Shown here: one piece after another, positions 1 through 27,790 of the stretch
Layout: every line of letters starts with the position of its first letter
Position numbering within the stretch: position 1 is the first letter of the stretch
Source: Pseudopyrenochaeta lycopersici
Lineage: Eukaryota; Ascomycota; Dothideomycetes; Pleosporales; Pseudopyrenochaetaceae
Direction of reading: 5' to 3'
Length of the DNA: 64,000 bases
Assembly: GCA_003313425.1 (NCBI GenBank)
Contig: NHZP01000027.1
Span: 744,001 to 808,000, forward strand
The notes under the pieces: generated by a model
The model's database searches: none
What the model saw: only the letters and a program-made list of their open reading frames with translations
Told to the model about the DNA's origin: nothing
Position numbers and translations under genes: made by a program

Positions 1-3000
1 GCACGGCAGGTTGGAGGGTGGAAAACTTACCTTCAGCCTTACGTGAAGCAACTCTTCCTCCTCACCTAGCGCTTGATACAGTGTCTCCATCGCTTGCAGA
101 CATGCGAGGTTTAGCTCGGAATGAGCATAATTGGTCTCCTGCCAGTTCGCTGTCCGAGCCAAGGCCATTCGACCTTGACCGACAGCATGCTCAAGATCCC
201 TCGTGGCTGTCTTCAGTCTGACGTCTTGGATAAATGTCCTTACGAGTCCGATTCTCTCGAGCTCTCCCTTGGCTACTCGTGACTCGGAAAACGCAATCGA
301 AGTGGCCTTCCGCAAGAACTTGCGCGCCTCCTCGTAGTTGCCAAGTGCCTCATACAATTCCACAAGGAAGAGGACCGCATCAAGGTTATCCCAATCATTT
401 GCGACCACTTTCCGCTGGAGCGCAACTGCTTCATCCAGTCGGCCCTGCTTAAATCGAAGGTAGGCTCGCCCTGGATAGGGGATATTGCGTTCATCGTCGC
501 CCTCGTTGAAGACGTGTTGGCACGTCTCTTGCACGAGGTCAATCATCCCATCGGCCTCGTCCATCTTGCCGGCGTCGACGAGAACCCGCGCCAGGGCCAC
601 CATGATCTGCAGCGTGGTTTCTTGTTCGATCCCGAAGCTTGCGAGCCGAAAGTCCATGGCGCGCCGGCCAAAAGACTCAGCCTCGTTATACCGGCCTTGC
701 TTGCTGCACGACTCGATTAATACCTCGAGCAAGACGCATGCCTCCTCGCGCTCCTCGGGATGCTCGACCTCCAAGAAGCGCAGCACGTCTCGCTGCACCA
801 GTTCTGCCTCAGGCCAGAAGCCTAGCGCCGGGAGGATGAAGGCGAGGTCCTTCTTGGTGTCGATTGTATCCTCGTGGTACTCCCCCCGCAACTCCCGTCG
901 CCGCTTCACGAGCTCCGCCGCCAGCTCTAAGGCTTCAGTCATGTCCCCCTCAGCAACAGTCGCCCGCAACAAGTCCGCCAGCAAGTCCAACATGGCGTCA
1001 GCTGTATCGCCAAGCACCCGCCGCGTCGAGTCAATTGCCGCCCGGTAGTGGGCCACTGCCTCAGGGTTGCGGTCCGTCTGCTCGCAGACGTAGCCCAGAA
1101 AACCAGCCGCCAGCCTCGCCGGCTCTGAGTCGGCTGTTGCAGCCGCAAGCACCTCGCGCGCCAGTGGCTCCGCGGCAACGTAGTCAGCTACATCGATGTG
1201 CAGTCTGGCTAGGGTGCACATAGACGTTAGCAAGTCTAACGTCGCGACACCGCCGGCGTTCACTCTCTCCCGCTCGAGCGAGGCGGCGTACAGGCGACGC
1301 GCCTCGTCCAGTTCGCCTCGCAGTTCCTTGCACGTAGCTTGGATGTACAGCGCCAGGGAGACCATTTTATTGTTTGTCTCAGGCACGTGGCTGGTGATGT
1401 GCAGGAGCCGCTCAGCTTGCACCTCGGCCTCGTCGAGCTGCCGTGCCCGCAACAGGGTTGCGCACAGGTCCTCTACGGCTTTGCCAGTGTGGACGTTCAT
1501 CTCGCCGTGGGATCGAACAGTAGAGGCGACGCGGCTCTGGAAGAGATCAATGGCTTCAGCTGACTTGGCTGCAACGGAGAGCGTCAGGCCGAGCTGGCGC
1601 TCCGCGTCGAGAGTAGTCTGATGATTATTGCCGAGCGTGGCTCGATACGCAAGCACGGCTTCCCGGCCGTAGGCTTCGGACCTTTCGACCTGGGCTTGGC
1701 TCCTGAGAGCCTCGCAAAGGGCAGTCTTGACGTCTGCTAGCTCTAAGGCGTCGTAGGGATCGGACTGCTTGAGGATATCCAGCACCTGCTCTTCGAGGAG
1801 ACTTGCTTGGGCCCAGCTTCCGCACTTGCCCAGCGCGGCGGCTAGGTTGCGCTTTTGCCTGATCGTGCTCGGGTGCTCGGGACCTATGGTGAGTTGGAGA
1901 TGGTCTACCAGCTTCTGTAGCAGCTGGGCCTCTTTGTCCCACAAACGACGCAGTCTGTAGTGCATGGCAAGTTGCTCCAGCACTGCATGAGTAGCGTGGG
2001 ACTTGCGTTTCCCGTGTACCTCGAGGCAGGTTTCGACCATGTTGGTAAGGATAGGCTCCGAAATCTCGTGCTGCCAGCAAAGATCCAGTCCTACTGCTAG
2101 GCCGATGAGAGTATGGAAGACCTCGAGGAAATCCTTGGGCTTTACAGCACGCAGCCTGTGCGGCAGAGACTTGGCTAACTCGGCCGCTGCTTCACATTTC
2201 TGGGCTCGGCAATAGTCTAGGACGAGACTTGCCTTGAGGTAAAACAAAGGTCCAGAGAAGTCCAGGGTTTTGTTGCCCTCACTGCCGTCATAAAAGATGT
2301 GGTCCTGATGGATTCGGTCGTAGAGCTCGAGCACTGCTTCTTGGATTTTGACTGCCTCTTCATACCTCCCTAGCTGCGACTCTGTGCTCGCACGCGCAGT
2401 CTCGGCTTTGACGGTGACAGGGTGGTTGCTACCGAAGGTGTCAGAGGCATTGAGAGAGACGGCAAGCGCATAATCATTTGCTTCTTGAATCCGTCCAAGA
2501 AAAGATGAGATGTAGATTTTGTCGATCATAGACTCGAACAAGTCGACATGGTCCGGGGGCAGTTGTGCCTGGCGTTGGGCGAGGACGGTTTGGTGCAGCT
2601 CCCCAGCTTCCTCGATCTTACTCTGATAGAAGAGTACGTTGTACAGTACTGTGATGGTGCGCAAGGTAGTCGGGTGTGCTTCTCCCAGGGTCGTTCTCTG
2701 AAGCTCGAGAGTGCTCCTCAGCTTCACTTCTCTCTCGGCAGCGGAGTCGATGCCGTCGCCGACTGAAAGCTGTGTTTCTTCCCTCTCGAGCTTCAGCTTT
2801 TCCAGTGCCGCCTGCAGATTAGCCGTAGCCTGTCTGTTCTCGTCTGAGTCCTCGGGAGCAGTTGGATGATCGCCCAGCCATTTCTCAAGGGCATCTGGGC
2901 TGTTTCCCTGGTCGGCAATGTCCCTGATTATCTGCAGCTTCACGTACTCGTCCAGTTGTTTGAGTTCTTGACGATAGTCATCGTCTTCGCCTGCCTCCTC

Positions 3001-5259
3001 CAGCTCCTCCAAGTCCTCCAATAGTGCCCCAGGCGTATGCTTGTCCCGGTCCCCGACAAACATGCGCTGCCCCTGCTGCTCAACCAGCTCCACTACCCTC
3101 TGCCTGTTCCCCAGCTGCACCGCGACATGCAGCCTCGTCCTGCCATGGCCCGGGTCGCCCTTGTCGAGCAACGTGAGGACAATGTCTTCCAGCCCAAGCC
3201 GCCACTGATACAGCTCTTCTTGGTCCAGCGACTTGCCACTCCACGTGTGGGAACACTGCTGCGGCCGCCGCCCCGCGTCCACGGCAATGCGCAGGAGCTG
3301 GTCCAGCATGTCGTCCGGCTCGACGCGCGCCCCTGCCTGCAATAACGCGAGCACCGCAGGGGCGTTGCCTGCATAGACTGCCATGGCGAGCGGCGGCACC
3401 TCCCCCACGGGCGCGTTGACCAGCGCCCGCACGCGATCGTGCCCCAGCAGGTGGAAGAGGACATGGATGCCGCGCACCGTGGCGCGCCCTGAGGCCGCCG
3501 AGTGCAGGATGGTGTGCGAGCCCAGGTCGACGGCCGCGCCGCGCGCCAGCAGCAGGTCGATAGTGGCGCTGTCGCACGTCGCAGACCCCACGGCGGCCTC
3601 AAGAGGCGTCTTGCCGTCCCACCGCGTCTCCAGTGGCGCCCCGCGGTCCAGCAGCAGCCGCACTGCTGCCGCATCGCCCAGCCCTACAGCGACGAACAGC
3701 AGCGGGACGCGTGCGTCGCCGGCTACTAGCGGAATCTCAACAGCGAGTGCCTGGCCTGCGACGCGCGCATCTAGCACAGCGGCTGCTACTGCTGCGCTGC
3801 CGGCCTGCAGCGACGCAGCCAGCACGGCAGCGTCCAGCGGGAGCAGGCTGTCCTCGAGCAGGCGGCGCACGATCGCGGCAGCAGCAGCGTCGCGGCGCCT
3901 GACGACCGTGCTGGTAATAGCCATAGGCTCTTCGCGGCTGCCAAAGCGGGCGCCGCGGGCGACCAGAGCGGCGAGCGGCCCGAGGCCCACCCAGCAGGGC
4001 GCGCGGGCGACGGCGTAGGAGAGCGCAGTGGCGCCGTCGGCGTCCTCGTCGTTGACAGCGGCCGCGCCCGTGCCCAGCACAAAATTGAGTGTCGACTCCA
4101 GAGCGCGCGGGGCTGCAGCGCCGTGGATGAGCAACAGTAGCAGGGCGTCATGCTGGTGGACGAGGTCGAAGAGGCCCAGCGGCGGCACGCGGGGCGATGT
4201 CCACAGCGAGTCGCGATAGGCGCGCTCCCAGTCGAGCAGCGAAGGGAGCAGGTGGTCAAGGTTCAGGGCAACCGCCAGCGGATACGTGCCTGCCGTCCAG
4301 CCAACCTCCTCGACGCCAAGGCCAGTCTGGAGGAAGGCGTCGACGAGGGCGGCGTTGCTGGTCGCGATGGCGACTTCCAGCGGCGTGCCTGCCACCATGC
4401 AGCTGCCCATGGCCATCCCAGGATCCGGTATCCGCTGCCGCAAGGCCTCCTTCCCTCCTGCAGCCGCGCCCAGAAGCTCGAGGGCGACGCCTGCCTCTTC
4501 AGGCGCGAACTGCCCGAGCCAGTGCAACGGCGTGGCCCGCGGGCGGCCGCCTGGCAGCATCGAGACGCCTCTGCTGAGAAGCCACCGAAGCACGTGGACA
4601 TGGCCGCCGCGACAAGCAGCGACGAGCAGATTCTCTCCCCATGCCTCATCCGTGGCCGCCACATGGGCAACCAACAACTCCACCAGCGGCAGTAGACCGA
4701 GGCGGGCTGCTGTGACCAGCAAGTTCCCCTGCATCTGGGCCCCATTGTCGTCCTCCACCAAACATGGGACACATTCGAGGTGCTCGTCATACTGTCTTCC
4801 GATGTCATGCAGCTTGATGTGCGCCTCTGCGAGATGGACCCCTTCGAGAACCGTCTCTCCATTCTGCCGAATATCAAACGTCCTCCTGAGCGCGTCTGCT
4901 TGATGCATCTTCTCATACAGCCGGAGCCGCTCGGCAAAGTACGTTTGGCTGTCGAGCCTGGACAGAGACTTCTCGAGCCTGGCGATGGCGTGGTCCATTT
5001 CCCACAACTCTGCAGGCACTTCGCCCATGACAGATTCATGGAGCCTAAAGACAATGGCGAGAGCTTTACAGCTCCCCATTTGTGCGGCCTCGGCCAGGAG
5101 TCTCAGCGACTGGGCAGTGTCGACTTTCTCTGTGCCAACATTAGACAGGTAGCACATGGCAAGGTCGAATAGAGCCGATCGTTTGCCAACATTGGATGTC
5201 GACGTTTCTATTGCATAGCGGAGCTGCTCAAGCAGATCGACTTGCACCGCAAGCGGCAT
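1..5259 (-). CDS. Sel1-like/ankyrin/TPR repeat region, probably the C-terminal part of the kinase gene at 5482-6698; truncated by the left window edge
   Basis: One minus-strand frame is open from the ATG at 5259 to the window edge. It begins with a helical Sel1-like stretch (from LLEQLRYAIETSTSNVGK; AMCYLSNVGTEKVDTAQSLR), continues with degenerate ankyrin repeats (AACRGGHVHVLRWLLSRGVS; GDAAAVRLLLDRGAPLE; GRTRLHVAVQLGNRQRVVEL, about 4700-3080) and then a long array of kinesin-light-chain-type TPRs (LGEAHPTTLRTITVLYNVLF; TIGPEHPSTIRQKRNLAAAL; TLGNNHQTTLDAERQLG). A GTAAGT donor at base 30 suggests the exon ends at 31, so the last 30 bases may be intron. GC content and codon use are normal, with no RIP scars. 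Ankyrin and TPR arrays are protein-binding modules, so a sensing or scaffold role is inferred. The first ATG (5259) is probably not the true start: the order kinase, Sel1-like, ankyrin is repeated in the intact gene at 20179-25550, so I take this as the downstream part of the kinase gene. Confidence 0.85.
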   Translation of the reverse strand, partial: MPLAVQVDLLEQLRYAIETSTSNVGKRSALFDLAMCYLSNVGTEKVDTAQSLRLLAEAAQMGSCKALAIVFRLHESVMGEVPAELWEMDHAIARLEKSLSRLDSQTYFAERLRLYEKMHQADALRRTFDIRQNGETVLEGVHLAEAHIKLHDIGRQYDEHLECVPCLVEDDNGAQMQGNLLVTAARLGLLPLVELLVAHVAATDEAWGENLLVAACRGGHVHVLRWLLSRGVSMLPGGRPRATPLHWLGQFAPEEAGVALELLGAAAGGKEALRQRIPDPGMAMGSCMVAGTPLEVAIATSNAALVDAFLQTGLGVEEVGWTAGTYPLAVALNLDHLLPSLLDWERAYRDSLWTSPRVPPLGLFDLVHQHDALLLLLIHGAAAPRALESTLNFVLGTGAAAVNDEDADGATALSYAVARAPCWVGLGPLAALVARGARFGSREEPMAITSTVVRRRDAAAAAIVRRLLEDSLLPLDAAVLAASLQAGSAAVAAAVLDARVAGQALAVEIPLVAGDARVPLLFVAVGLGDAAAVRLLLDRGAPLETRWDGKTPLEAAVGSATCDSATIDLLLARGAAVDLGSHTILHSAASGRATVRGIHVLFHLLGHDRVRALVNAPVGEVPPLAMAVYAGNAPAVLALLQAGARVEPDDMLDQLLRIAVDAGRRPQQCSHTWSGKSLDQEELYQWRLGLEDIVLTLLDKGDPGHGRTRLHVAVQLGNRQRVVELVEQQGQRMFVGDRDKHTPGALLEDLEELEEAGEDDDYRQELKQLDEYVKLQIIRDIADQGNSPDALEKWLGDHPTAPEDSDENRQATANLQAALEKLKLEREETQLSVGDGIDSAAEREVKLRSTLELQRTTLGEAHPTTLRTITVLYNVLFYQSKIEEAGELHQTVLAQRQAQLPPDHVDLFESMIDKIYISSFLGRIQEANDYALAVSLNASDTFGSNHPVTVKAETARASTESQLGRYEEAVKIQEAVLELYDRIHQDHIFYDGSEGNKTLDFSGPLFYLKASLVLDYCRAQKCEAAAELAKSLPHRLRAVKPKDFLEVFHTLIGLAVGLDLCWQHEISEPILTNMVETCLEVHGKRKSHATHAVLEQLAMHYRLRRLWDKEAQLLQKLVDHLQLTIGPEHPSTIRQKRNLAAALGKCGSWAQASLLEEQVLDILKQSDPYDALELADVKTALCEALRSQAQVERSEAYGREAVLAYRATLGNNHQTTLDAERQLGLTLSVAAKSAEAIDLFQSRVASTVRSHGEMNVHTGKAVEDLCATLLRARQLDEAEVQAERLLHITSHVPETNNKMVSLALYIQATCKELRGELDEARRLYAASLERERVNAGGVATLDLLTSMCTLARLHIDVADYVAAEPLAREVLAAATADSEPARLAAGFLGYVCEQTDRNPEAVAHYRAAIDSTRRVLGDTADAMLDLLADLLRATVAEGDMTEALELAAELVKRRRELRGEYHEDTIDTKKDLAFILPALGFWPEAELVQRDVLRFLEVEHPEEREEACVLLEVLIESCSKQGRYNEAESFGRRAMDFRLASFGIEQETTLQIMVALARVLVDAGKMDEADGMIDLVQETCQHVFNEGDDERNIPYPGRAYLRFKQGRLDEAVALQRKVVANDWDNLDAVLFLVELYEALGNYEEARKFLRKATSIAFSESRVAKGELERIGLVRTFIQDVRLKTATRDLEHAVGQGRMALARTANWQETNYAHSELNLACLQAMETLYQALGEEEELLHVRLKVSFPPSNLPC

Positions 5260-5481
5260 CTGCGGTATTGCCTACGTCGTGCCATTTGTTAACGGCTCTC
5301 TCAAGATCAACTGCGGGCAGGGGATTCATACAAATGTCGCCACTGATGAGCTGTCAGCTCCAGCAAAGGGTTCAAGAGGCGCGGCCCACTGTTTGTCTTG
5401 GGTAGGAGGGAAGCCGACTTGTCGCCTAGAACGGTATTTAGTCTGGGCAGCTAATAAGCTGATGGCAATTACAACACTGAC
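5260..5481 (-). other. Exon junction between kinase and ankyrin parts: likely intron 5343-5481 plus an apparent one-base frameshift near 5272
   Basis: After removal of the 139-base GTCAGT...CAG intron the coding frame runs through 5342-5276 (NPLPAVDLERAVNKWHDV), then would reach a TGA at about 5225 unless one base near 5272 is skipped, after which it reads directly into the ankyrin frame. A no-frameshift alternative is a single intron from 5477 (weak donor GTGTTG) to 5272 (GTAG). I favour the first because the intervening peptide looks coding, with the start of the Sel1-like region following it. Confidence 0.5.
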
Positions 5482-6698
5482 ATCCAGAGATTTGCAGCGA
5501 GAGCTTTATTCTGGCGGAAATAGCTGACGATTCTTTCAATGTCCTCACGATCGTGCGCATTGTCCTTTAGACATGCCAGAAGAACACGGGTGATAATCTG
5601 CACAAGCGAGCCGCTTTCGCCCCCATGAGCTTCCTTCAACGAAGTCATGCTTCGGAAGAGCAGCTCATCTTTCGGTAGGGTGTTGAGCCGAGACACGGCC
5701 GCCATGACATCCTCGCTGCCTATGATTTCACCTAGACTCTTGTAATATCGCACGCCTCCCAAGATCAAGTCCCAGCAGAGGAGTCCAAACGAGTAAATAT
5801 CACACTTGAACAGCGCTTCTGCCTCCATTGGAACAGGGGCATTACGGCATCGTATCTCCGGTGCGTTGAATATCAATGTTCCGAGATAGACTTGGCTTCT
5901 TCGCTCCGACGTGTGAAGATCAATCAATGAATGACCAAAGTCAGACAACTTCGCAACATATGGTCGTCCGTACCCCTCGAAAACTAATGTGTTCTCCATC
6001 TTCACATCTCCATGAGCTATCGCGCACTTGTGGAGAGCCTCAAGTCCGCTCGCAATGTCGTGCATGAGATGAGCCTTGGTGATAAGGTCCAGCTTTTTGT
6101 CCGGCGCGAGACTCTGGCAAAAGTCCCTTAGAGTCCCAAATGGAGCAAACTCGGCAACAAGAGAAACATTAGTGCTGTGCTGAGAGGACTTGGATGCAAA
6201 ATCAGGCCGATAACCGAGCAGAGAGACGATGTTCATGTGAAACTGCAGTGGCAGATGGGTGAGGATCCGAAGCTCCTTCAAGACTGTGGCCACAGAGCGT
6301 TGGTGAGCAGATGAGCTTGCCTCGTCTAGTGGGTCATCCTTCTGAAAGATCTTGATCTTCTTGACGGCCACCACGGCGGGTTTACCATCTCTCATCTCAT
6401 TAAGCGTGCATTTTTCCACGCTGTACGAAGCCCCATCGCCAACATACTTGCCTACTCCATCCCAGCCGCCGTCGAAATCGGTAGCCTTGTAATACCGCAG
6501 CTTTGTGTAATCCTCCTGCGATTCAGGCTTGGATCCCAATCTCTTCCAGCTCAGACTGATTAAATAAGTCCATATATCAACAGGCTCCAGCTTGCCAGAT
6601 CTTTTGGCTCCCAAGGTGACCTTCCCGTCCTCGGGATGGACAGAAACGGATGTTATCCCAGAGGAAAGCACAGTACGGAGGTCCCAGGTAAGACTCAT
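5482..6698 (-). CDS. Ser/Thr protein kinase exon (N-terminal part of kinase-ankyrin-TPR protein)
   Basis: Start chosen at the ATG at 6698 (MSLTWDLRTVLSSG); the frame further upstream has no ATG. About 405 residues. The glycine loop is at residues 87-94 (GDGASYSV), the ATP lysine in VAVKK (K113), and a glutamate follows in LKELRIL. The catalytic loop is HGDVKMEN (D231, K233, N236; Gly replaces the Arg of HRD), DFG begins at D253, and APEI marks the activation-segment end. All catalytic residues are present, so an active kinase is expected. The first possible stop (5471-5469, after MSVL) is probably skipped. A GTCAGT donor at 5481, a CTGAC branch site and a CAG acceptor at 5343 give a 139-base intron leading into a frame reading GDICMNPLPAVDLERAVNKW, which then needs a one-base shift near 5272 to enter the ankyrin frame. 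Divergent from the HeLo-pseudokinase gene at 7027. Confidence 0.85.
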
Positions 6699-7026
6699 CT
6701 CGAAATTCCATAAAAGGTTACGTAGAGAGGGAAAGAGCAGAAACAACAAAAGAACGCTACAGAGATGTGCATGTTCAGCCTGATACGCAACCAGCCTGGT
6801 CGGAATCTGATTCCCGCGGCTGAGGTTCAGCTCGCAAGATACTTGACAGCTTTGTCAGCCTGCCAAGACTGAATAGGAATAGTAGCGCAGCCGACCGGTA
6901 ACTGCATGTCGCTTGTCCGAACTAATCATGTCATCCATTGATTGAATCCGGCCCCTCCCCCGCCTACTTTGCGGCCCGGTTTCGTTGCCCCCGCATCCTA
7001 ATTCCAACAACACAACCGACTGACCC
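6699..7026. promoter_or_regulatory. Bidirectional promoter of gene pair 1
   Basis: The 328 bases between the two divergent start codons (6698 minus, 7027 plus) must hold both promoters. I see a pyrimidine-rich, C-rich stretch before the 7027 ATG, common in fungal promoters, but no convincing TATA box or known operator. The shared short intergenic region makes co-regulation of the two genes plausible (inference). Confidence 0.5.
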
Positions 7027-8734
7027 ATGGAAGTAGCCAGCCTTATCTTGGGTGCTGTCATCTTGGTGAAACCAGTTTGCACTACCGTTGACGATATCCT
7101 GAAGAACTACAATGGATTCGGAAAAGATGCCGAGCGTCTGCGCTTACGCTTCGCAGTATCCAGGACCAGGCTGGACTCAATGGAGCGTGTCTTGTTCGAT
7201 GAGAACAAATTCTCCCCCATCATGACCGGCCGTCTGATTGATCACCTCCCGGAGAAATTATGCGACGACATGCTGGCACTTCTAAGACAGCTCTACGGCC
7301 TTCTGATGGAATATGCGGCTGTCCGTGTCCAGTACAATATGGAGCAACATGAGGCCAAAGTTGGTGCCAATAGTCTGGCAAATCTGTCGCCAGAAGATCG
7401 CACCAATGTCTTTGCACTGGACAAGAAGACAATAGATGCATCGCAACAGAAAGCCGTAGGATGGGCACGGAAAATGATGTGGGTGGCCTTCGACAAAAGT
7501 AGCACCGAGAAACTCGTGTGCGAGGTCGAGGCGTGGACAGAGAGAACACAAACGCTGCTAGAAGCTGCATGGTGGCCCCTATCCTTCTTCCAGACCCTGG
7601 AACGGCTGCAAAAGCTTGAGCAAGATAAGGACGCCAACACCGTTGGATTGCTGCGTGGCATCGGAGTTCGCAAATTGCTTGTCACCGACCCGACGTTGAT
7701 GCTTTCTCAGTACAAGGCGAAGGAAGCTATTCCCAAAGATTTTTGCTCTAGCTCCAAGATTAATGCTTTTGACTTGGGTACCCTAAATGGCTCGGATGGA
7801 CACTACATGGCTGAGTACAAAGAGTATGCACCTAGCAGCAGGGGTTTAATCAGTGCCCCCGTCGTCCGACAGCGAGTCACCCAGCTAGCAGCCCTACTCC
7901 ATGAAGCTCCCATCTCGGATCCAGCGCTGAGGGTGCTGCAGTGTACACACTACTTCGAGGACACCCCAAAATCACGCTTTGGACTGCTTTATCTGCTTCC
8001 ACCTGCCGCCGACACAAGGCAACATCCTACGACGCTCGCCAGCATGCTGGATGCCAAGTATAAAGGCACTCGCCCGTCTCTGACCGCAAGGATACGCCTT
8101 GCCCACAAACTCGCCTTGTGTCTACAACGGCTGCACACTTACTCGTGGGTGCACAAGTCACTGCGACCAGAAAACGTTCTTCTATTCCCATCAAACAACG
8201 GACTGTCCGAAATTGAGGAAGCACTCGAGGATCCACGGCTTGTTGGGTTCGAGTACTCACGGCAGGAGTTGGACTTTTCCGATCAGTTTGGAGAATCAGA
8301 GATAAAACGAAATATCTACCGACATCCCACTCGGTGGGGACAACCGACCAATCGATTTGACAAGATCCATGATATATATGGTATGTTATAAAGGCATTTT
8401 GCTATATTTCATCCTAGCGACTAGAACACAGGGAATACTGATGATAAACACCTCATACATAGCCCTCGGTGTACTCCTTCTAGAAATCGGCCTTTGGTCT
8501 CGAGCAGATCAGTTCGACAACGGAGCCCTCGTTGCCCCTACCATGGCTAACAACCCAGTCGCTGTCCAAACCAAGCTTCTCAAACACGCACAGGTCCGCC
8601 TCGGATTCTACGCCGGCAATGCATTTCGTGATGTCGTAGTTGGGTGTCTTACTGGTCAGTTCCCTGAAACAGACATCACTGAAGGGTTTTCTCGTTTGGT
8701 TCAAGGGCTCGATGTAGTAGGAGCCGCTGTCTGA
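7027..8734 (+). CDS. HeLo/HeLo-like domain plus pseudokinase protein (MLKL-like architecture), 541 aa
   Basis: Exons 7027-8380 and 8463-8734; intron 8381-8462 starts GTATGT and ends CATAG, restoring HDIY-ALGVLLLEIGLW. Residues 1 to about 200 form a HeLo-type helical region: MEVASLILGAVILVKPV, GFGKDAERLRLRF, RTRLDSMERVLF, and WVAFDKSSTEKLVCEVEAW, which lines up with the conserved W-x(3)-D-K part of HET-s-type HeLo domains. Residues from about 240 to the end are a kinase fold with dead motifs: HKS (H376-K377-S378) replaces HRD, so the catalytic Asp is Ser, and GFE (407-409) replaces DFG; RHP replaces APE. The protein therefore should not phosphorylate. HeLo/HeLo-like domains act in fungal regulated cell death by targeting membranes and are related to the MLKL bundle; a death-effector role here is inference. 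A kinase gene lies 328 bases away in divergent orientation. Confidence 0.88.
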
Positions 8735-14480: not shown

Positions 14481-14722
14481 CCTCCCTAGTACTATAATTT
14501 ACTAATAGATTATTAATATCTAAAGGATAGTAGGAATTAACCTACTTAAAGAACGCTAATAAGCATAAATAAGATATTATAATATATTAAAGCTAATAAG
14601 GACCCTAGTAAACTAGGATATCTAGCTTACTAAATATAATTAAGTAGTAACTAACGCTAAGACTAAAGAAGTTATAGAAGTATAATATAATAATAATATT
14701 ATAGAAGACTTCTTATTAGTAG

Positions 14723-15186
14723 TGTGCAGGAACAGAGGCCTCAGCCAACTTCTCCCTGTCGATGGTAGCCTTGAGCACACTGAACACAGCTAGGTAGTCA
14801 TCCCATCAAGGATGGTATGAGAGGTAGGAGGTAGATAAACAAGGATGAACAATAAGGGGGGGAGGTAATAACTGTATCTGTAGTAGCTGTATCCGTCTAT
14901 CTGTCTGTACTGTCTTAATTACTTTTTTTTTGTAGATGTTTTCTGGGTGTTTTTCTAGGTAGTAGATCCTTAGATGTTCCCCTGCTGGATTCCTCTGCCT
15001 GCCTGCCTCCTTATATCCTTATTTTTCTGCTAATCTCGCTTAATTGCCTTGAAGTCTGAGCTGTTGTGGCCTAAGCTGCTGTGGCCTGAGCTGCTGCATC
15101 TGAACTGCTGCATCTGAACTGCTGCATCTAACTAGCTGAGATGCCCTTAGTGGCCAGGTGACCAGGTCACCAAGTGCATCGGCACA
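14723..15186. mobile_element. 464-bp unclassified insertion (solo-LTR-like) nested in the copia element
   Basis: A block of normal GC content with ends TGTGC and GCACA, flanked by GTAG on both sides (14719-14722 and 15187-15190; TAGTAG in both flanks leaves the exact edge uncertain). It contains short tandem units around 15060-15120 (repeats of GAGCTGCTG and GAACTGCTGCATCT). No coding frame. Probably a solo LTR or small non-autonomous element. Confidence 0.5.
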
Positions 15187-18100: not shown

Positions 18101-19313
18101 AAAAATACTTTATAGTCTTTAAATTTTACTACTCTTATAGTAAAAAGAATTTATCTTAACTTTTACTAAACTAAGCTTTAAATAAGTACTATATAAGGCC
18201 TACTGTATAATTAAAGATAGTATTATTATTTTCTTTTACGTTAATAATATTATCTTAGCCTACTACTAGAAGAAGGAGGTAGAAGCTTAATAAGCTATTA
18301 AGGCTCTTTAAGAAAGATATACTTTTACAGGTAGAGAAGACCTATAATAGTTTCTTAGTATTAAAGTTATAAGAGACTAAAAATAATAATTAATTTAACT
18401 CTCTTACTTAGCTTATACTAATAAAATTAGTAGACTTATAGATAAGAAAGATATCTAATATAATACCCTAATAGTAAGCGTTAAACTCTAGCTACGTAAG
18501 AGATTAGTATTACTATTAGAAGTTAATAAATATTAGCGTAAGATTAGTTCTTTACTATTTACTACTATTACTATATAACTAGATATTACCTTTATATTAT
18601 CGCGCCTTACACACTTCTTTATTAACTTTAGTATAGAGTATTAGGAGGCTACTAATAGAGTCCTACTCTACCTTATAGTAATAAAATAAAAAGTACTCTA
18701 ATTAGAAGAAGATAATAAGCTTAAAGTAGCTAGTAACGTATTATTTACTAATAATAGAGTTAATAGAAAGAGTTTATAAGGTTATATAATTAAGCTATTT
18801 AGTAGGCTTATTACCTAGAGAGTAAGTAAACAGGATATAGTTACTACCTTAATAACTAAAGTAGAACTACTTATACTCTCCTAAGTAGTAAAGAAAGCTA
18901 TCTTTACCTCGCAACTTTTTAAAGAGCTCTAGATATTATTACTAGAGTTAACTATTATAATTTAATATAATAATATAGAGATAATTTAACTCATTATAGA
19001 AGAGATTATAAAACTTTAAACTAAACTTTAATATATAGATATCTATAACTACTAGCTATAATAAGAAGTATTACTAGGATAAATTTAAGTTAAATATATA
19101 GAGTCTTTATAAATACTAGCAGATAGACTTACTAAAGCGCTGCCCTTAAATAAATAAGAGAACTTTCTTAATTAATTAGGACTAGTAAATAAGAAACTAG
19201 CCTTAGTAAAAGAGTTAAAACTTAAAGATATATAGACTTAAATAGAAGATCTAATAATTATATAAGATATAGGTTTATAGTAGCTTAGAAGATTACTCTA
19301 AGCTAAGGGAGTG

Positions 19314-19489
19314 TGTTAGATCAGAGGTATAAAAACTAAAGTATATAAATACTATATTATAGACAGTATTACCTATGTATTATTAATGAATTAGGTCTGT
19401 GTTTAAATGGAGAGAGAATAGAACTAACGAATAGCACAATTAATTCTGATCCACGATTATAACCAAAAAGATTTATTAAAATTCTGACA
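19314..19489 (+). repeat. 3' LTR of copia element
   Basis: 176 bp. Starts TGTTAGATCAGAGG, ends ATTCTGACA and is followed by the TAAGT duplication. Confidence 0.85.
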
Positions 19490-19778
19490 TAAGTATACTA
19501 AATATACTAAGTATACTAAGTTACTTATATAACCTTTATAAATATAGATTACTATAATCAACCCTCTTAACTTATTATATTTAACTTTAATATTATACTT
19601 TATAGTATAAGTAATAGTTATACTAATTATTCTTAAACCTTTTAGTACTCTTTATAGAAGCACCTTCTTACTATCTTAGTATTAAAAGCTTTGTTTATTA
19701 AGTCTCTTACTCTATCCCTAAGAACTAACTTTGCGGTCTTACTAGTTATCCTTACTATTAGCTTTTAAGATTTTTACA
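19490..19778 (+). repeat. Second part of the split gypsy 3' LTR
   Basis: Follows the TAAGT duplication and matches the 3' two-thirds of the LTR seen at 33669-34057 (for example CTCTTTATAGAAGC; CTTACTATCTTAGTATTAAA). It ends TTTTTACA at 19778. With 13389-13506 it forms one LTR interrupted by the copia element. Confidence 0.75.
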
Positions 19779-20178
19779 ACGCTATAGAATAATGCACTGT
19801 GTAAATTAGGCGTAAAGGCGATAATACAAATATAATTTATAGGTAGGAGAAGTTCTAACTATTTAGTAGTAGCTACAGTACAGTACTTTAAGAGAAATTT
19901 AGTAGATTTTAACGTGTACGTGGAGTTATTGTGGCTTGAAGTTGAAGTACCCCTCATATTTTGCGGCACGGTGGGTTTTGCGCGACGCAGGAGGGGGGGG
20001 GGGGGGACGTTAGTAGATATGAAAATCGAGTATCGCTCTAAGACTAACGAAATCACCGTTCATCCCGTGTGGCCCTGGTGATGCTGCTGCGGCAAAGACG
20101 ATTTAATAGCCGTTGGGCGAGTCCATATGTCGCCATAGTGCTTGACTAGACACTACAGGCTCGAGCATGGATCCTATT
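19779..20178. other. Intergenic downstream region of the kinase-ankyrin-ZZ gene
   Basis: The boundary between the AT-rich transposon block and the gene island. It holds a G homopolymer run at about 19991-20006. No gene recognised. Confidence 0.5.
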
Positions 20179-23100
20179 CTATTGGCTATGCAGATCTCTA
20201 TCCTGGTTCTCCCGGTAGTCAATCTTCGTCCAGTTCAACATCTCGTGCCACAACTCGTCTCTTTCAGGCGGTTCTGTACCTTGCTCCTGTGTAGGTCTCG
20301 TGGGAAACCCTAACTCGAACTGCTCCTTCGTCATTATGCTCTCGTCTATTCTCACACGTGGATGCCTCTGGTCATGAGTGGGCTCGCAGGTAGTGCAAAA
20401 ATCCGCGTTTGGACACGTCTCGCAATGATATCGGACCCCTTTGATAAATGGGTTGGCATGGTCCTTCACTGCGCAAGCAGTGCCATCACAGCTGAAGCCA
20501 TAATGCGTGACCGGATATGGAGATCCCCAAGGGACAACCTCGCCGTCAAAAGTTAGCTGCCCAGATTCATCGAGCCAGCCGCTCTCCCAGACAGTCTGTT
20601 CCACGAATCGGCCCTCAGCTTTCATCTCCTCATACTTCTTCTCACTGATTTGGCTGTTGCGCTCTACTGCAACGCCGTGGACGTATAAGCGTGGGTGAGC
20701 ATGACTCTCCATGCAACCTTCGCAGAAGCTGGCGGTTTGGCATGGCAAGCAGCGGGCGCGGTCTCCTCTGATGAATGAGTGAGACCAGACCTTGTTGGCA
20801 CAAGCGTCACCTGCACAGAAGATGCCAAAATGCTCTACGAGCCCAATATTGCGAGCTCCAAGGTTGCTGCCTACGGTCAGAAGCGATTGTCGTAAGTCCC
20901 CTACATCAAACTCCTTGTATGGCTGTTGTCTAGTCTTTAGCGCGGTGTCGCTAGCAGTAGCTGGTTCTGAGTTGTGTAATGGGGCCACAGGTATATCATC
21001 CGGCCTTTTTGATGACCTATCGGAGATCGCGCTCATTGATTGAGTCAAAAGCTCAAGTCTCTGCACAGTAATCTTGCGGATCTTGTTGTTGTGGCAGCCA
21101 CATTTCGCTTTGACCTGAAGAGTAGCTCGTAAATCCTCCAGACGTAGCTCTTGCCCCTGCAAAATCTGCAGATGGAATTCTTGGAACTCTTCCTTGGTCA
21201 TGGCTGGAGGGTTAGCTGCGCAGAACCGATCTGGGTTTGCACCACCGTCCAGGTATCGCAAGCAGCGTAAGATGCCCTGCGTATCATATGATTCGATGCA
21301 TTTTAGCTTCAAGATCCTTTCGTATATATCCTTGAGAGGATAAGGGTATCTCACAAGCATTGGCGAGTCCGGCAGATCCGCGGAATTCCGGCTCTTTGAG
21401 TACGCCATAAAGCGATCCATGTATGAGTCTGCCCATGTCGAAATCTCATGGCCATCTCCAAGCACTCGCAGGACGACCTCGAATAGAGCGGCTTGCTGAA
21501 TGTGATCTATTCCAATATGCGAGAATTCACCAAGCCACGGGACGTTTTTGGTTGCTGATAGTAGAGCATCATGACGTTTGTCGTTATCCCCAGCAAGCGG
21601 CTCCGAAGATATGAATCCGATTGTTGCCTCTACCATGATCCAAGGTTGTACCAAGCTATTCACCAACTGCTGATACTCAAATGTGCCTGTCATGTCCTCT
21701 CCAGTCATGTCGGGATAGTGTTGGCCAATAATGCGCAAAACGATGGTTTCTAGGCCTAGCATCTTGGAGCTGGCGTGCTCCAGTTGTCGCATTTGCGCGA
21801 TGAACGGCTCAATCGCCTCGTAGAGCTTCAATATCGTGGAGTACATGGGAACATGCTCTGATTCGGATGATGCCCTGTAAATCAAGCTTGCGATTGCGCT
21901 ACTTCGCTTCGCAAGGTTCTGAAGTGGTTGCGGAATTTGACCACGCGTAAGAAGCTGATTGCCGAAGAGAAGGACATGCGACCTGGCCATAGATAGTGTG
22001 GACTTCCCTGGTCCAGGGGGTATAGATACATCGGCGCCTGCGTCAAGAAGCAGTTTCACCGCAGAGAGGTTCTTATTGGCAATTGCGACATGGAGAGGTG
22101 TCAGGCCGCTGACATGTCTAGCATTAACATGATCTGGCCCAGAGAAATGCTTCAAGATTAAGGCTGTTAAAGCATCAAATTTATCGGCCGCTGCATGCGT
22201 GCCATCGTCCTTCTTTAACTTCTCCAGTGGTTCGAGGTCTACATTCACGGCCATGTGAAGGATGGTCTGCTGAGTAGCAGGGTTTATCACAAAGTCGGGC
22301 CGTTCTTGTGGATTATCCAGGCTGAGAATAAATCTACGCATTGTCAGTATCTTCGCCAGTGCCATGGCGTTGACGACCTTACTCTATGGCTCCAAGGAAA
22401 TCATGGAAGTGTTCACGGATCGTAGGAATCATGAGTGTCCCGGCAACAGTATAACCAGTGCTCAGTATTCGATTCAAGCCACCACCTCGTCGAATGAGCA
22501 ACCTGGCTAGATCATATGACTGACGTACAAGTGCCATGTGCAACGGCGGGCTTCCATGCCTATCTGGGACGTCCGGAGGTACTCCAGTATTCATCAATCT
22601 TTCGGCGAACCAGATATCAGCCCTATGGCTGGCACATACGTGCAGGTAGCTGGTGGTGTCAGCAGTGCCCGGTGGGTACGATATGCCTTGCTTGTACTGA
22701 GCACCAAGTTCGATTAGACGATCAAATGTTGACTTCGCTCCATGCCTTATGCAAGAGTGTAAAGGTGTGAGCCCTGTCACAGGATCTGGAGTGTCGATTG
22801 CGGCCACAATGGCGTCAAAGGAAAGAAGGTTCGTTGCCATCTCTTCATTTCCCGTCTCTAGGGCACAAAGCAGTGTGCTCTGTGTCCTAGAATGGAAGAC
22901 TAGAACAGGCTCTATGAAGCCGAAGTTGTCCAGCACTCGCAAGGTTTCTTCAGCAGCAGTAACGAAGTGCGAGCCATGCACGGCAATCCGATTAGTGGTG
23001 TATTCGGCACTGACAGTATATCGCACAAGAGAGTCACCTTTTCCAACACGCCAGGCTCTGCCAATCGACTTCTTTTCTACAAGCTCGTCATGGCCCACCA

Positions 23101-25550
23101 TACCTGTTAGCAGATGTTCTAGAATTGCTGCAGTGTGAAGTTGGGCTGCTGCTTCGACGCTGTAAGTGAAGTATCGCTTGCGTTCTTCGAATCTTTCAGG
23201 AATACTGCCTTCAGATATCGCGATGATGGCCTTCACGACGTCAAGACGGTTGGTCCCAATGGCTTTGAGCATCGCATCACCCTCGATCATGTCTAGGAAG
23301 AAGTAAGTATTGTTCATGGAGGATGTCCCGATACACCATGCTTGTCGAATTCGAACACCACGATCGTGAAGCGCTTGCGTAATGGTTTCAATGTCTTCGG
23401 GCCGCATTATCGCCAGATAGTCGAGCAAATTTGCTCCATTTGATAGATGGATACTTGCCCCAGCCTCAATCAGGTAGAGAGCCTCTTTGGAGCGGCCATG
23501 CATGCTGGCAAGGAGCAGAGGGCTCTCGCCAAGTCCGTTTTGAAGATCGATGCTGCAAGCATGGCCGTGGATGAGATCCTTAAGCATTTGGATATCTCCA
23601 AACAAGGCCACAGCATGGAGAGTTGTGTTTCCATGTCCAAAAGTAGGTTCGTCTGCACGGCCATCGCCCTTGAGACGTTTGGCGTGTCGTTGGAACCCTT
23701 CTTGTGACTGAACTTCCAATGCATTTTCTGCCATTCCGTGGAGTTCGCAAAGTCGCTCGTCTCTACGCGTGGTATAATTAGGGTGTTCAAGTATTTCTGG
23801 AATTCGGTCCAGTATCCAGCGGCGTGCCGTGATTGCCTCGTTCACCGCGGCAATGATTGTAGCATTCAGGGCCTCGCTGGTTTCGCCGTCGGTGAGACTG
23901 CCTCCAAGAGCATCTCGGATGCTCAAGATTGTCGATGATGCAAACATGGCTTGAATACCGCCTAGCTTTATCAATTTGAGTAACAATCTGAAGACCTCGG
24001 TCGGATCCTTCCGGCATCCAACCCCAGAAAGCCTGCAGGATATCATCACGTAGAGAGAGCTGTATGCTATTGCCGTGTTTTCTTCGTGGCTTCCAGCGGC
24101 GGAAGGTTGCTCGTATTGAGCTAGCATGTCCTCCAATGCTTGATAAAAGCATGTCTGCAAGGGCGCTCCCAGAACGGCTAGGAACTCAATAGATCTCGGT
24201 AGCTTGAAGAGCTTAGCATTGCACAGGTTTACTAAACTAGACAAGTTCTGTACTTACAAGTTCAAACTTGCTAGGCAACGGCTGTATCGGCTGCGCCGCA
24301 TATTGTCTACTATTCCTATTCGTAGGTGTATTGTTAGAATTGTTAGCCAGGGGGGGAAGGGGGCTGCGGAATGCTCACGGCGTTGGCACAATATTAAGCG
24401 ATTCTTGTAACTCCTGAGCAGCCACCTCAAGGCTTCGAGTAAGTGGTTCTAGCGCCAGCGTGTGCAAGAACAAACGTAGCAAGTGATTTCGGTCCTCACT
24501 GCTGAGGGGAATGGGCTCGATAAAATTTTCAATACTAGCTGCGACGAATGCACAAAGACCATAACCGACGAGTTGAATCTGCGTGATCGCAGCGCGTCTA
24601 GATGCTGTATCGGCAGGAAGATCAAAGAAGGTGGAGAAGGGCTCGTTGCCATCGGCCAGGACCCTCCATACTAGCAGTCCGAATGAGTACACATCCGTGA
24701 GATGTAGTTGGCTTGAAGTCAGAGCATCACCACCTTCTGGAGCACGGAAGTAAGGCGTATATCCTACAAGATGTGTAGTGCTGTTCTCCATTTCGAGGCC
24801 TGGTGAAGAATTGATGACAGCGCAGCCGAAATCCGATAGCTTTGCAACATATTTGTCTTTGTCATGAGGAAATACTAAGACATTCTCAGTCTTGACGTCT
24901 CCGTGGGTTATGCCACAGCTGTGCAGTGCCAGTAGACCCTCCGCAACATCAAGACACAGCTTCTTTTTTACTTGGAGCTCGATAGGATGAATCGACCTAT
25001 AGCGCTGGAGATGGGCCAGTGTGCCAAATTGGGCATGCTCCAGAACAAGGCAAACGGTAGTCTGGGTTGTGTCGCTGGGATCGGGTGTCCACAGGATCCG
25101 TTGTAATGAGACAATGTTCTCGTGGTGTGCAAGTGGCGGATGCGTCAGTACGCGGCATTCAGTGACCAAGGCTCGAATTTGATGCTTTACTGTGGAGGTG
25201 TAGCCTTGTGTACGGCCTGCTGACCCAAGCCCCGCTTTAGAGATCTTGTATGCAAATACAGGGCTGCTCGTCGGATATGTGCTCTTCCGCTGCGGCAATC
25301 TCTTTACCAGAAATGAGAGACCATTGCCAATGACATCCAGACTCGAGAGCGGGGTTAGCTCCCGTTCGAAGTCGACGCCATCGGAGCGGAGGATCAGGTT
25401 AGATATTGTGAGAAAGATGTTGCTGATTGCCGGCTCTTCGGAGGTCTTGAAGGCATCACTGTCTCCGGAGTCTGCCAGACTAATAGATCTCTCGGATAGA
25501 ATGAGGGACGAATCGGCATCCATGGCGAGATCGGTAGGAGCACCGTACAT
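20179..25550 (-). CDS. Kinase-Sel1-like-ankyrin-ZZ-finger protein, 1734 aa, four exons
   Basis: Exons 25550-24379, 24315-24258, 24202-22383 and 22333-20179 total 5205 bases (1735 codons). Introns: 63 bases (GTGAGC, branch GCTAAC, end AATAG), 55 bases (GTAAGT, end CAAG) and 49 bases (GTAAGG, branch ACTGAC, end CGTAG). Each removes the stop or frame change that otherwise splits the region into three. Residues about 70-380 are a protein kinase: G-loop GNGLSFLV, FAYKIS lysine, HGDVKTEN (catalytic D218), DFG at D240 and RAPE; all key residues present. About 411-600 is a Sel1-like helical region, with ankyrin repeats at about 600-1010 and 1035-1130 (GLTPLHVAIANKNLSAVKLL). The C-terminus has two ZZ-type zinc fingers at about 1519-1566 and 1627-1679 (FCAGDACANKVW with CLPCQTASFCEGC; CDGTACAVK with CETCPNADFCTTC). 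The likely role is a receptor-like or scaffold kinase; ZZ and ankyrin modules bind protein partners. Divergent from the HeLo-pseudokinase at 26018. Confidence 0.85.
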
Positions 25551-26017
25551 GAGACTCGAAAGGGATGCTAGTTTGGCGGCCGAAGTGGATGCGGCCGGGG
25601 CGGTGCTGTGCTTATCAATGACTCGACCTCACCAGGAACAACGCACAACGTCGTATAGCCTCATGAAGGTTCAGCTTCAAGGGTGACACACAGCTCAACT
25701 TTGATTTTGCCATCTTCTTATTGGGTCTGAAGCGCTACCGCTCTTAACGAGTCTATGATTGGTGTAGAGCTTGGTGTCGTTCACCGGAAGCCTAGCTGGT
25801 TATTTGAGGCGCTGCCTCGGTAGGGTTGCACAGGCGCTCGATTGGTCGCGACACGCGGCCTAGACTGCGCCACCGTCAACACTTCGCCTTGTGGCATCAC
25901 GCCTCATTCCAGGAGTTGCGCAAAGCTAAAGACAAAATACCTATCAGCCTCCCTTGTTTCCTACGTGATGAGTGCTTTGGCCTGCCTGACCCCAATCACT
26001 CGTCCCAAGGACCCGTC
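25551..26017. promoter_or_regulatory. Bidirectional promoter of gene pair 2
   Basis: The 467 bases between the divergent ATGs at 25550 and 26018. No confident core-promoter element seen. An in-frame upstream extension of the plus gene to 25826 lacks an ATG and looks non-coding in composition, so it is counted as 5' leader. Confidence 0.45.
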
Positions 26018-27790
26018 ATGGATGTTGCATTCGGAGTTGTGAGTGTGATAGGCGTTGCGATTCAGCTCTTCCAGACCATCAAGGCTTCGTACGAACTCTT
26101 GAGCACGGCCAAGGGCTTGGAGAAGGATGCACCCGTTCTGCTATGGAAGCTCAAGATCCAACAGGCACGATTCGTTAGTTGGGGTCAATACTTCGGCGCA
26201 GAATCTGGAGTTCTAGATGCACAACTGCAGGAGAATGGCTTGTTCGATGTAGTGGTTGGCCTGCTGCAACAAACAAAGCAAATGCTCAGCCATGCGGATA
26301 CTCTTGCATCTAAGTACGGTGTCCATTGCCCACCGGGCTCATTTCCACTGCTACCGACTAGCTCTACAGCAGCGAGACAGACAATACCTTCAATCAACGC
26401 TAGAATCAGTTTCAAGCTTCGCTGGGCAGTATCAGACAAGGCTAAATTTGCCTCTCTCATAGCAGACCTCAAAGATTTCAACGATGGACTTCATGCACTA
26501 TTACGAATCAATGAAACTGTTGCCATCGACAGGCTTATCCACTCAGCTGTCCTTCGAGGGACCCGCAACGCCAGCCAGGTAGAAAGTGTCAATGTTGCAT
26601 GCAGGGAGCTCAAGGAGTCTAGTAGCTCATCACCACCGAATGTTGCTCTGTTGTACGACCACATCCAGAGTTCTACGCAGTCAAAGCTTGCCATCATGTC
26701 TCCTGAGGACAAGGCCATGGATATGTCACAGCGGCGGAGCCGTACACAGATTGAAACATTCAAAGAACGTACGACATCTGAATTTCGGACTGTGGGTCGA
26801 TATCGCATCTACGGGAAGGACAGCAATGGCCAAGAAGTTACAGACAACATCAGAATCCTGATCGAGTGGAAGGAATTTGATCCCAAAAGTCCTGTGAAGG
26901 CACTGATCGACAGGCGCGTCAATCGCATCGCCGAGCTGCTCTCTGCAAAAACGCCCAAGCCTACGGATTTCCGTATACAAGATTGCCTGGGGTTTTTCGA
27001 AGACGATGAGTTTCCTAGATATGGCGTGATGTATAGAGTGCCTCAGTCGGCAAGCGGACAAGTGGTCTCTCTCTACAGCCTGCTTGGCAGGAGCGAGGAT
27101 CCATATCTGCCCGACTTGGGAGACAAGTTTGAGTTGGCTAAAATCCTCGTCACTGCACTACTGCGGCTTCACGATTGCGGATGGGTGCATGGGTCCCTCC
27201 GCTCGAACAACATCATTTTCTTAGCCGACGAGGATGAAAGCGAAGCTAGACATCTTCGTGACCCATATATTCATGGGTTCACCTTCTCAAGACCCACCGA
27301 CCCCAGCGAGATCACATTGGAATATTCTATGACGCATTTCGAGCACGACCTTTACCGGCACCCTCAAATCGCGCAGTTCACTTCCCGCAAGGTTCTAAAA
27401 GATATGACTGATCATCAAAGGTTCCAAACTGTTCACGACCTTTACGCCTTGGGGGTCATCCTCTTAGAGATTGGCTTGTGGAGGAGGATCAACACCCTTT
27501 GGAAAGACAAGTATACGCAGGCGAGATTCCATGAAAAACTTGTTACTGCCTATGTCCCTAGATTGGGCCCCAAGATGGGTATTATATACAGAGACACGGT
27601 ACAGCGTCTATTGACTGTTCCCGTTACGCAAGAAACCCAGAGGGATGCAGCATCAGACGATGCGAAGCAGGACTCTGACACGGTTCTCGATTATCACCGT
27701 GAAGCATTGGTACCAGAAGTCTTACCACTCTCTGATAGTATTCAATCATACTGGAAGTTCGTGGCGAGGCTCGCAGAGTGCAAGGTATAA
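26018..27790 (+). CDS. HeLo domain plus pseudokinase protein (MLKL-like architecture), 590 aa
   Basis: Single exon; start at MDVAFGVVSVIGVAIQLF, which is where HeLo domains usually begin. Residues 1 to about 200 are a HeLo (prion-inhibition and propagation) domain: a hydrophobic first helix, then LEKDAPVLLWKLKIQQARF, SWGQYFG, and RWAVSDKAKFASLIADLKDF, a typical signature of the family. Residues about 270-590 have a kinase fold with dead motifs: H391-G392-S393 in place of HRD (no catalytic Asp), GFT (420-422) in place of DFG, and RHP in place of APE. It shares the layout of the protein at 7027-8734, including VHxSLRxxN and LGVxLLEIGLW. Known for the family: HeLo domains execute cell death in fungal incompatibility. 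Inferred: this is the effector or adaptor of the adjacent kinase-ankyrin-ZZ protein. No amyloid-type C-terminal motif is apparent. Confidence 0.88.
   Translation: MDVAFGVVSVIGVAIQLFQTIKASYELLSTAKGLEKDAPVLLWKLKIQQARFVSWGQYFGAESGVLDAQLQENGLFDVVVGLLQQTKQMLSHADTLASKYGVHCPPGSFPLLPTSSTAARQTIPSINARISFKLRWAVSDKAKFASLIADLKDFNDGLHALLRINETVAIDRLIHSAVLRGTRNASQVESVNVACRELKESSSSSPPNVALLYDHIQSSTQSKLAIMSPEDKAMDMSQRRSRTQIETFKERTTSEFRTVGRYRIYGKDSNGQEVTDNIRILIEWKEFDPKSPVKALIDRRVNRIAELLSAKTPKPTDFRIQDCLGFFEDDEFPRYGVMYRVPQSASGQVVSLYSLLGRSEDPYLPDLGDKFELAKILVTALLRLHDCGWVHGSLRSNNIIFLADEDESEARHLRDPYIHGFTFSRPTDPSEITLEYSMTHFEHDLYRHPQIAQFTSRKVLKDMTDHQRFQTVHDLYALGVILLEIGLWRRINTLWKDKYTQARFHEKLVTAYVPRLGPKMGIIYRDTVQRLLTVPVTQETQRDAASDDAKQDSDTVLDYHREALVPEVLPLSDSIQSYWKFVARLAECKV

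What the first reader, a model, noticed from the sequence alone, without database searches (positions are those of the whole stretch)
20179..27790. Divergent pair: kinase-ankyrin-ZZ protein and HeLo-pseudokinase, a candidate fungal necroptosis-like module
Seen: an intact 1734-aa kinase with ankyrin repeats and ZZ fingers is transcribed away from a 590-aa protein with a HeLo domain fused to a pseudokinase (HGS for HRD, GFT for DFG), 467 bases apart. Known: HeLo/HeLo-like domains are membrane-targeting cell-death domains related to the four-helix bundle of MLKL, and MLKL is itself a helical bundle fused to a pseudokinase that is switched on by RIPK-family kinases, some of which carry ankyrin repeats. 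Inferred: the kinase senses a ligand through its repeats and controls the HeLo-pseudokinase, which would make this a two-gene death module in a fungus.
Basis: partly seen in the sequence, partly recalled or inferred. Interest (0 to 1): 0.93.

Follow-up and report, generated by a model that had tools for sequence, protein, structure and literature searches.

The report
Fungal MLKL-like protein with kinase partner
In one fungal genome, genes for a kinase with ankyrin repeats lie back to back, six times over, with genes for a protein that joins a HeLo domain to a kinase-like domain lacking catalytic residues (ankyrin repeats and HeLo domain each clear in five of the six), and the pair would likely act as a built-in cell-suicide switch resembling RIPK-MLKL necroptosis in animals.

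Summary
The 590-aa protein is a HeLo domain (Pfam E 1e-26) fused to a kinase fold without the HRD and DFG aspartates; the 1734-aa kinase-ankyrin gene reads through three introns, its ZZ finger just under Pfam's cut-off. Start codons lie 467 bases apart.

The adjacency is not a one-off. Kinase queries of the 62.7-Mb genome converge on eight loci. Six, including a second pair in this window, lie divergently within about 1 kb of a pseudokinase of this family; a seventh pair is split by AT-rich DNA. Cudoniella acicularis encodes both proteins under consecutive locus tags. By sequence profile the pseudokinase side finds HET-s first, then MLKL, a few bits ahead of other solved kinases; its HG/HK-x and GF-T/E/D motifs resemble MLKL's HGK/GFE. 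The partner kinase keeps its catalytic residues.

Against: five of twelve pseudokinase loci lack a partner; paralogue co-divergence was not shown; structure search does not single out MLKL; phosphorylation, membrane attack and death are untested. HeLo-like pseudokinases are mentioned in print; I found no paper on the kinase pairing. Best reading: a kinase-switched, necroptosis-like two-gene module, a new variant of fungal HeLo death clusters.

The parts
26018..27790 (+). HeLo-pseudokinase gene, 590 aa, intronless (stop included)
26036..26554 (+). HeLo domain, residues 7-179
26711..27787 (+). pseudokinase domain, about residues 232-590; HGS at 391-393, GFT at 420-422, beta-3 Lys 285 kept
25551..26017 (.). 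467-base shared intergenic region, presumed bidirectional promoter
   Evidence: promoter use is inferred
20179..25550 (-). kinase-ankyrin-ZZ gene, 4 exons (25550-24379, 24315-24258, 24202-22383, 22333-20179), 1734 aa
   Evidence: introns predicted
24378..25550 (-). kinase domain ORF (391 codons); HGD at 216-218, DFG at 240-242, Lys 102
   Evidence: Pkinase E 5.3e-22; catalytic residues kept in the family
22382..24244 (-). first ankyrin-repeat stretch (ORF)
   Evidence: Ank_2 E 3.3e-19
20182..22365 (-). further ankyrin repeats and C-terminal ZZ-type zinc fingers (ORF)
   Evidence: Ank E 9.1e-8; ZZ E 3.5e-4, just under Pfam cut-off
7027..8734 (+). second HeLo-pseudokinase in the window: two exons, coding similarity 7027 to about 8379 and from about 8462 to 8734; exact splice sites not set
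   Evidence: HeLo E 3.3e-8
2002..6749 (-). second divergent kinase-ankyrin gene of the window, with C-terminal TPR; introns and 3' end not determined
   Evidence: Pkinase E 1e-24; Ank_2 E 1.9e-21 and TPR_12 E 1.3e-9

Best explanation
This is a two-gene unit, present as six divergent pairs in this genome, in which the kinase with ankyrin repeats is predicted to sense a ligand and likely phosphorylates its HeLo-pseudokinase neighbour, which would then free its HeLo bundle to pierce the membrane and kill the cell. Shown by calls: the domain make-up, the loss of catalytic residues in one partner and their retention in the other, the recurrent divergent pairing, and the HET-s and MLKL profile matches. 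Inferred: shared promoter use, physical contact, phosphorylation of the pseudokinase activation loop, HeLo release, and death. The most likely natural trigger (inferred) is a non-self or pathogen-derived ligand bound by the ankyrin/ZZ region.
Against: Five of 12 pseudokinase loci have no kinase of this family beside them in the 20 kb fetched: C2a, C2b, the decayed C55, C3 (an ordinary kinase stands about 5 kb off), and C52a, fused to another kinase-like domain without catalytic aspartates. One of 8 kinase loci is an orphan and looks decayed. Paralogue distances do not co-vary significantly: r 0.33, 824 of 5040 permutations as good without Cudoniella; r -0.05 without C49 too. Only one other species could be checked for adjacency, and only through locus tags. 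C40's HeLo scores below the Pfam cut-off, C49's HeLo is not found, and C16's ankyrin match is below threshold. MLKL leads other kinases by under 5 bits, and structure searches rank MerTK, BRAF and JAK2 JH2 instead. No direct evidence of contact, phosphorylation or death.
Confidence: 0.5

Rival explanations
1. The pair is a functional unit but the direction is reversed or allosteric: the pseudokinase scaffolds, activates or restrains the kinase (as KSR does for RAF/MEK or JH2 for JAK; recalled), and HeLo only tethers the complex to the membrane.
For: The pairing itself says nothing of direction. JAK2 JH2 pseudokinase structures are among the top Foldseek matches (ranks 1, 11, 19, 25 and 37).
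Against: The HeLo domain matches a known cell-death domain, and the sequence profile's best kinase-type match is MLKL, an executioner.
Confidence: 0.18
2. The pairs are heterokaryon-incompatibility (allorecognition) loci: the executioner is the same, but the trigger is a mismatch between alleles or loci after hyphal fusion, not a pathogen ligand.
For: HET-S, the closest structure to the HeLo domain, is an incompatibility protein (PMC12881547 and PMC10197012, passages read). HET-domain genes lie near two of the pairs (window 30154-31800; L039:7845-9071).
Against: No population data. The closest database orthologue keeps 91% identity, which does not suggest extreme divergence. The rival mostly changes the trigger, not the mechanism.
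Confidence: 0.15
3. Passive linkage: one ancestral chance pair was duplicated segmentally and the neighbours have not yet separated; the proteins do not work together.
For: The pairs are paralogous, so they are not six independent origins, and paralogue distances do not co-vary significantly. Five pseudokinase loci and one kinase locus stand without the partner.
Against: The paralogues have fallen to 26-44% identity while keeping the same divergent layout, and the neighbourhood persists in Cudoniella at 59-60% domain identity.
Confidence: 0.15

Closest known systems
[quoted passage not shown]
   Same: N-terminal helical bundle fused to a C-terminal pseudokinase; HRD and DFG lost with HG-x and GF-E-type motifs; beta-3 Lys kept; a partner kinase that keeps its catalytic residues (PMC6013482 passages).
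   Different: The bundle matches HET-S HeLo rather than the MLKL 4HB in our searches; no RHIM-like [VIL]Q[VILF]G core in the two HeLo-pseudokinases scanned; the partner carries ankyrin repeats and ZZ fingers and lies next door in the genome; phosphorylation unknown.
het-S / nwd2 and HELLP / PNT1 fungal amyloid-signalling clusters
   Same: Two-gene cluster with a HeLo/HELL executioner and a sensor gene (PMC12881547 passages).
   Different: The partner here is a kinase, not an NLR, and the HeLo protein carries a pseudokinase in place of a C-terminal amyloid motif.
Fungal HELL-kinase/pseudokinase proteins noted in a 2025 review
   Different: The passages read name no partner kinase, no ankyrin kinase and no divergent pairing.
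RIPK4 / ANKK1 (recalled, not from a call)
   Same: Kinase domain followed by ankyrin repeats.
   Different: They were not among the 60 rows shown; fungal members also carry ZZ or TPR ends.
CHAT/S8-protease and gasdermin gene pairs of fungi
   Same: Enzyme-bearing sensor next to its membrane-pore executioner (PMC12881547 passages).
   Different: Activation by proteolysis rather than, as predicted here, phosphorylation.

Membership tests
HeLo domain (PF14479) | Profile match above the curated cut-off | tested here: met
   94.1 bits against 23.2. Of 11 family loci scanned, 7 pass; of the 6 immediate pairs 5 pass, C40 at 17.9 does not
HeLo domain (PF14479) | HET-S-like helical fold | tested here: met
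HeLo domain (PF14479) | Membrane permeabilisation and cell death | not testable with these tools
   needs bench work
MLKL | Helical bundle N-terminal to a pseudokinase in one chain | tested here: met
MLKL | Pseudokinase closer to MLKL than to other kinases | tested here: inconclusive
   MLKL is the best kinase-type row by sequence, 3.7 bits ahead of the next family and 4.8; structure search ranked JAK2 JH2, FGFR4, BRAF and MerTK, and MLKL was not among the rows shown
MLKL | HRD and DFG replaced, beta-3 Lys kept | tested here: met
   27 of 28, 28 of 28 and 24 of 28
MLKL | N-terminal bundle is the MLKL 4HB with two brace helices | tested here: inconclusive
   helices 164-227 follow the bundle but align within HET-S HeLo; MLKL not among the rows shown
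MLKL | Phosphorylated in the activation loop by a partner kinase | not testable with these tools
   only a Ser/Thr/Tyr-bearing loop, well kept among close relatives
RIPK family kinase | Kinase domain closest to RIPKs | tested here: inconclusive
   RIPK1 fills 12 of the first 14 PDB rows at 90.1-90.4 bits, but JAK1 scores 91.4, EGFR 90.2 and LRRK2 88.9
RIPK family kinase | RHIM or death domain | not tested
   only two HeLo-pseudokinases were scanned for a RHIM-like core; no death-domain row was listed for the kinase pieces at E up to 1
Fungal amyloid-signalling HeLo cluster | NLR sensor with NB domain next to the HeLo gene | tested here: not met
   the neighbour is a kinase-ankyrin protein; no NACHT or NB-ARC row
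Fungal amyloid-signalling HeLo cluster | Shared amyloid motif on both partners | tested here: inconclusive
   no RHIM-like core in the HeLo-pseudokinase; other motif families and the kinase not scanned

The most novel reading that the evidence does not exclude
Fungi run a true kinase-to-pseudokinase necroptosis: a family of divergent ankyrin-kinase / MLKL-like pairs, multiplied like an immune repertoire, in which phosphorylation rather than amyloid templating fires a HeLo pore. It would mean that the RIPK-MLKL logic is older than animals, or evolved twice, with each pair a self-contained sensor and executioner.
Probability: 0.3. Interest if true: 0.95.

Novelty: new variant of a known kind. 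Interest (0 to 1): 0.82.

Why it matters
Fungal necroptosis-like death is described, in the passages read, through NLRs that template amyloids onto HeLo proteins. A recurrent kinase / HeLo-pseudokinase pair would supply a kinase arm and make the question of a common origin of necroptosis directly testable: two genes side by side, clear catalytic residues to mutate, and several divergent pairs as replicates. The multiplied pairs also look like a sensor repertoire whose triggers could be mapped.

Tried and rejected
A fusion as a Rosetta stone: contig C52 carries a pseudokinase and a second kinase domain in one 1447-aa frame, but the second domain reads HDG and GFG, so it too lacks the catalytic aspartates, and it was dropped. 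The database protein P0021 does join a kinase with HHDIKPSN and DFG to this pseudokinase type, but it is one predicted protein and may be a gene-calling join, so it is not counted.

Co-divergence of partners: Mantel test on 8 pairs r 0.62 (154 of 40,320 permutations as good), but this rests on the orthologous C27/Cudoniella pairs; without Cudoniella 824 of 5040, without C49 too 382 of 720. Not supported among paralogues.

RHIM-like core [VIL]Q[VILF]G: none in the window HeLo-pseudokinase or in its Cudoniella orthologue. MLKL 4HB as a structural match to the N-terminal model: not among the rows shown; the 590-residue model's lists are filled by kinases.

Other collections: viral contigs and genome contigs gave no relative. 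A wider profile search of the protein database added only two rows, so adjacency outside this genome rests on Cudoniella.

Papers: searches listed none that I recognised as describing the kinase / HeLo-pseudokinase pairing (two returned nothing). I saw listings only, apart from passages of PMC12881547, PMC10197012, PMC12258605, PMC9815663 and PMC6013482 and one section of PMC12881547. Many papers are not held.

Corrections: an earlier count said RIPK1 fills 13 of the top 14 rows; the table gives 12 of the first 14.
Full report
What is there. The window is G000:C27:744001-808000 of a 62.7-Mb fungal assembly. The closest named relative of the HeLo-pseudokinase is from Mollisia scopiformis (86% identity over 71% of the query; Helotiales, Leotiomycetes), so the source is probably a related species (inference). 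The HeLo-pseudokinase gene (26018-27790, +) is one open frame of 590 aa with a Pfam HeLo domain (E 1.3e-26) and a DUF7580 match (E 2.8e-8). The divergent gene needs three predicted introns to give a 1734-aa protein: kinase, ankyrin repeats, and C-terminal ZZ-type fingers that score 20.8 bits against a cut-off of 21.4. The gene island (20-32 kb, 45-51% GC) lies between blocks of 20-32% GC.

The pairing recurs. Pseudokinase queries of the whole genome find one family: 12 loci, the same 12 and 11 of them. Kinase queries converge on eight loci: the first eight rows; seven of them fill the first seven rows and C49 is row 11. The next-best rows are weaker kinases (2.1e-5, 3.1e-8). Six of the eight kinase loci lie divergently beside a pseudokinase locus: C27 (this finding), C27 again at window 2002-8734, C13, C16, C40 and C52 at 250 kb. 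Between first in-frame ATGs lie 467, 328, 841 and 398 bases for the four with both N-termini read; for C16 and C40 the open frames are 284 and 557 bases apart, with first exons unresolved. A seventh kinase (C49) is divergent from a pseudokinase 4.5 kb away (gap GC 0.38), consistent with a pair split by inserted AT-rich DNA. The eighth (C27:740815-741402) has VFG for DFG and looks decayed; no pseudokinase query hit beside it. With random independent placement, six or more of eight kinases within 3 kb of 12 loci has a probability of about 6e-17. The pairs are paralogous, so this argues for kept linkage rather than six origins.

The partners share a make-up. The kinases at C13, C40, C49 and C52 carry ankyrin repeats downstream; the second window kinase has ankyrin repeats and TPRs; C16 has only a sub-threshold ankyrin hit (E 0.16). 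On the other side the HeLo domain passes Pfam's cut-off in five of the six immediate pairs; C40 is below it, and C49 has no HeLo hit. Of the 11 family loci scanned, 7 pass for HeLo (C55 not scanned). Five of 12 pseudokinase loci have no kinase of this family within the 20 kb fetched: C2a, C2b, the decayed C55, C3 (an ordinary kinase about 5 kb off), and C52a, fused to another kinase-like domain without catalytic aspartates.

Another species. In one search the orthologue in Cudoniella acicularis (also Helotiales) is G7Y89_g5657 (46% identity, whole length); the best kinase hit, far ahead of the rest (1230 against 210 bits), is G7Y89_g5656 (40% over 92%). Both sit on a contig of 42,624 bases. 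Consecutive tags imply adjacency; orientation could not be read. Domain identities to the window pair are 59% and 60%. No other named species appears in both lists.

Dead and live kinases. In an alignment of 28 HeLo-pseudokinases (21 of the 23 database rows, plus seven from this genome) the HRD Asp is kept in 1 and the DFG Asp in none, while the beta-3 Lys is Lys in 24 and Arg in 2. In 24 kinases (18 of the 50 database rows, plus six from this genome) the catalytic Asp, Lys and Asn and the DFG are kept in all, the beta-3 Lys in 23 with one gap, and the motif is HGD rather than HRD in all.

Likeness to MLKL. A profile of the 28 proteins finds HET-s first among all solved chains (E 7.9e-19, HeLo part). 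The kinase-type rows then begin with MLKL (E 4.2e-7), which fills 10 of the first 12. A profile of this genome's 11 loci alone again puts three MLKL rows first (best E 1.9e-8), ahead of HRI (5.4e-7). The leads are 3.7 and 4.8 bits; a single-sequence search of the window protein found only one weak kinase row. The printed alignment sets MLKL's HGN...GFE against the family's HG/HK...GF-E/T/D. Human MLKL has VAIK230, HGK331 and GFE351, with RIPK3 sites T357/S358 nearby (PMC6013482, passages read). The kinase profile matches JAK1 at 91.4 bits, RIPK1 at 90.4, LRRK2 at 88.9 and IRAK4 at about 85: tyrosine-kinase or tyrosine-kinase-like in type (group names recalled) but not assignable to RIPK.

Where a switch could sit. 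Between orthologues the segment 411-460, the activation loop and its surroundings, is best kept: 36 of 50 identical to Cudoniella, against 47 of 81 in residues 1-100, 33 of 79 in 100-180 and 32 of 90 in 181-270. It holds Ser, Thr and Tyr kept among close relatives (Thr/Ser at 433 in 24 of 28, Tyr 446 in 28 of 28). Regulation by phosphorylation here is inference.

How it most likely works. The ankyrin/ZZ region binds a cue (inferred); the kinase becomes active (inferred; catalytic residues shown); it phosphorylates the neighbour's pseudokinase loop (inferred); the HeLo bundle is freed and attacks the membrane (inferred from HET-S and MLKL). The partners would be co-expressed from the shared intergenic region (inferred).

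What is known. [quoted passage not shown] The searches named under Tried and rejected found no paper on the kinase pairing. Hence a new variant of fungal HeLo death clusters, with a kinase in the sensor's place.

Noticed in passing
window 2002-8734: A second divergent pair of the same two families, with TPRs at the kinase's C-terminus.
   Followed up: yes
L043 (C27:736001-744000), 3241-5402 minus: A third ankyrin-kinase of the family about 3 kb left of the window, with VFG for DFG and broken frames; probably a decayed member of the same cluster.
   Followed up: partly
window 30154-31800 +: HET-domain gene (PF06985 E 1.9e-27) 2.4 kb downstream of the HeLo-pseudokinase; another HET gene lies beside the C40 pair (L039:7845-9071).
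   Followed up: partly
window 45153-51106 +: Remains of a retroelement in several frames: reverse transcriptase and integrase zinc-binding hits.
   Followed up: no
window 12001-20000 and 32001-44000: AT-rich blocks (20-32% GC) on both sides of the gene island, as expected of repeats mutated by RIP (not tested).
   Followed up: no
L013 / C52:66304-70644: A 1447-aa frame with two tandem kinase-like domains without catalytic aspartates, the first of this pseudokinase family, behind zinc-finger-like cysteines (by eye).
   Followed up: partly
L029:3792-5921 minus (C52): Subtilase (S8) frame next to a DUF7580 frame, recalling protease sensors of fungal gasdermin clusters.
   Followed up: no
window 24378-25550 minus: Best NCBIfam match of the kinase is the bacterial anti-phage kinase MAD6 (E 1.3e-11, 43.7 bits, far below its cut-off of 460).
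   Followed up: no
P0025 (Xylariaceae sp. FL0016): The same kinase-ankyrin-ZZ order in another class, Sordariomycetes (ZZ E 4.3e-9; lineage), supporting the ZZ call in the window gene.
   Followed up: partly
window 52643-55342 +: 900-aa frame with a marginal PhyH match (E 1.3e-4), otherwise unexplained.
   Followed up: no
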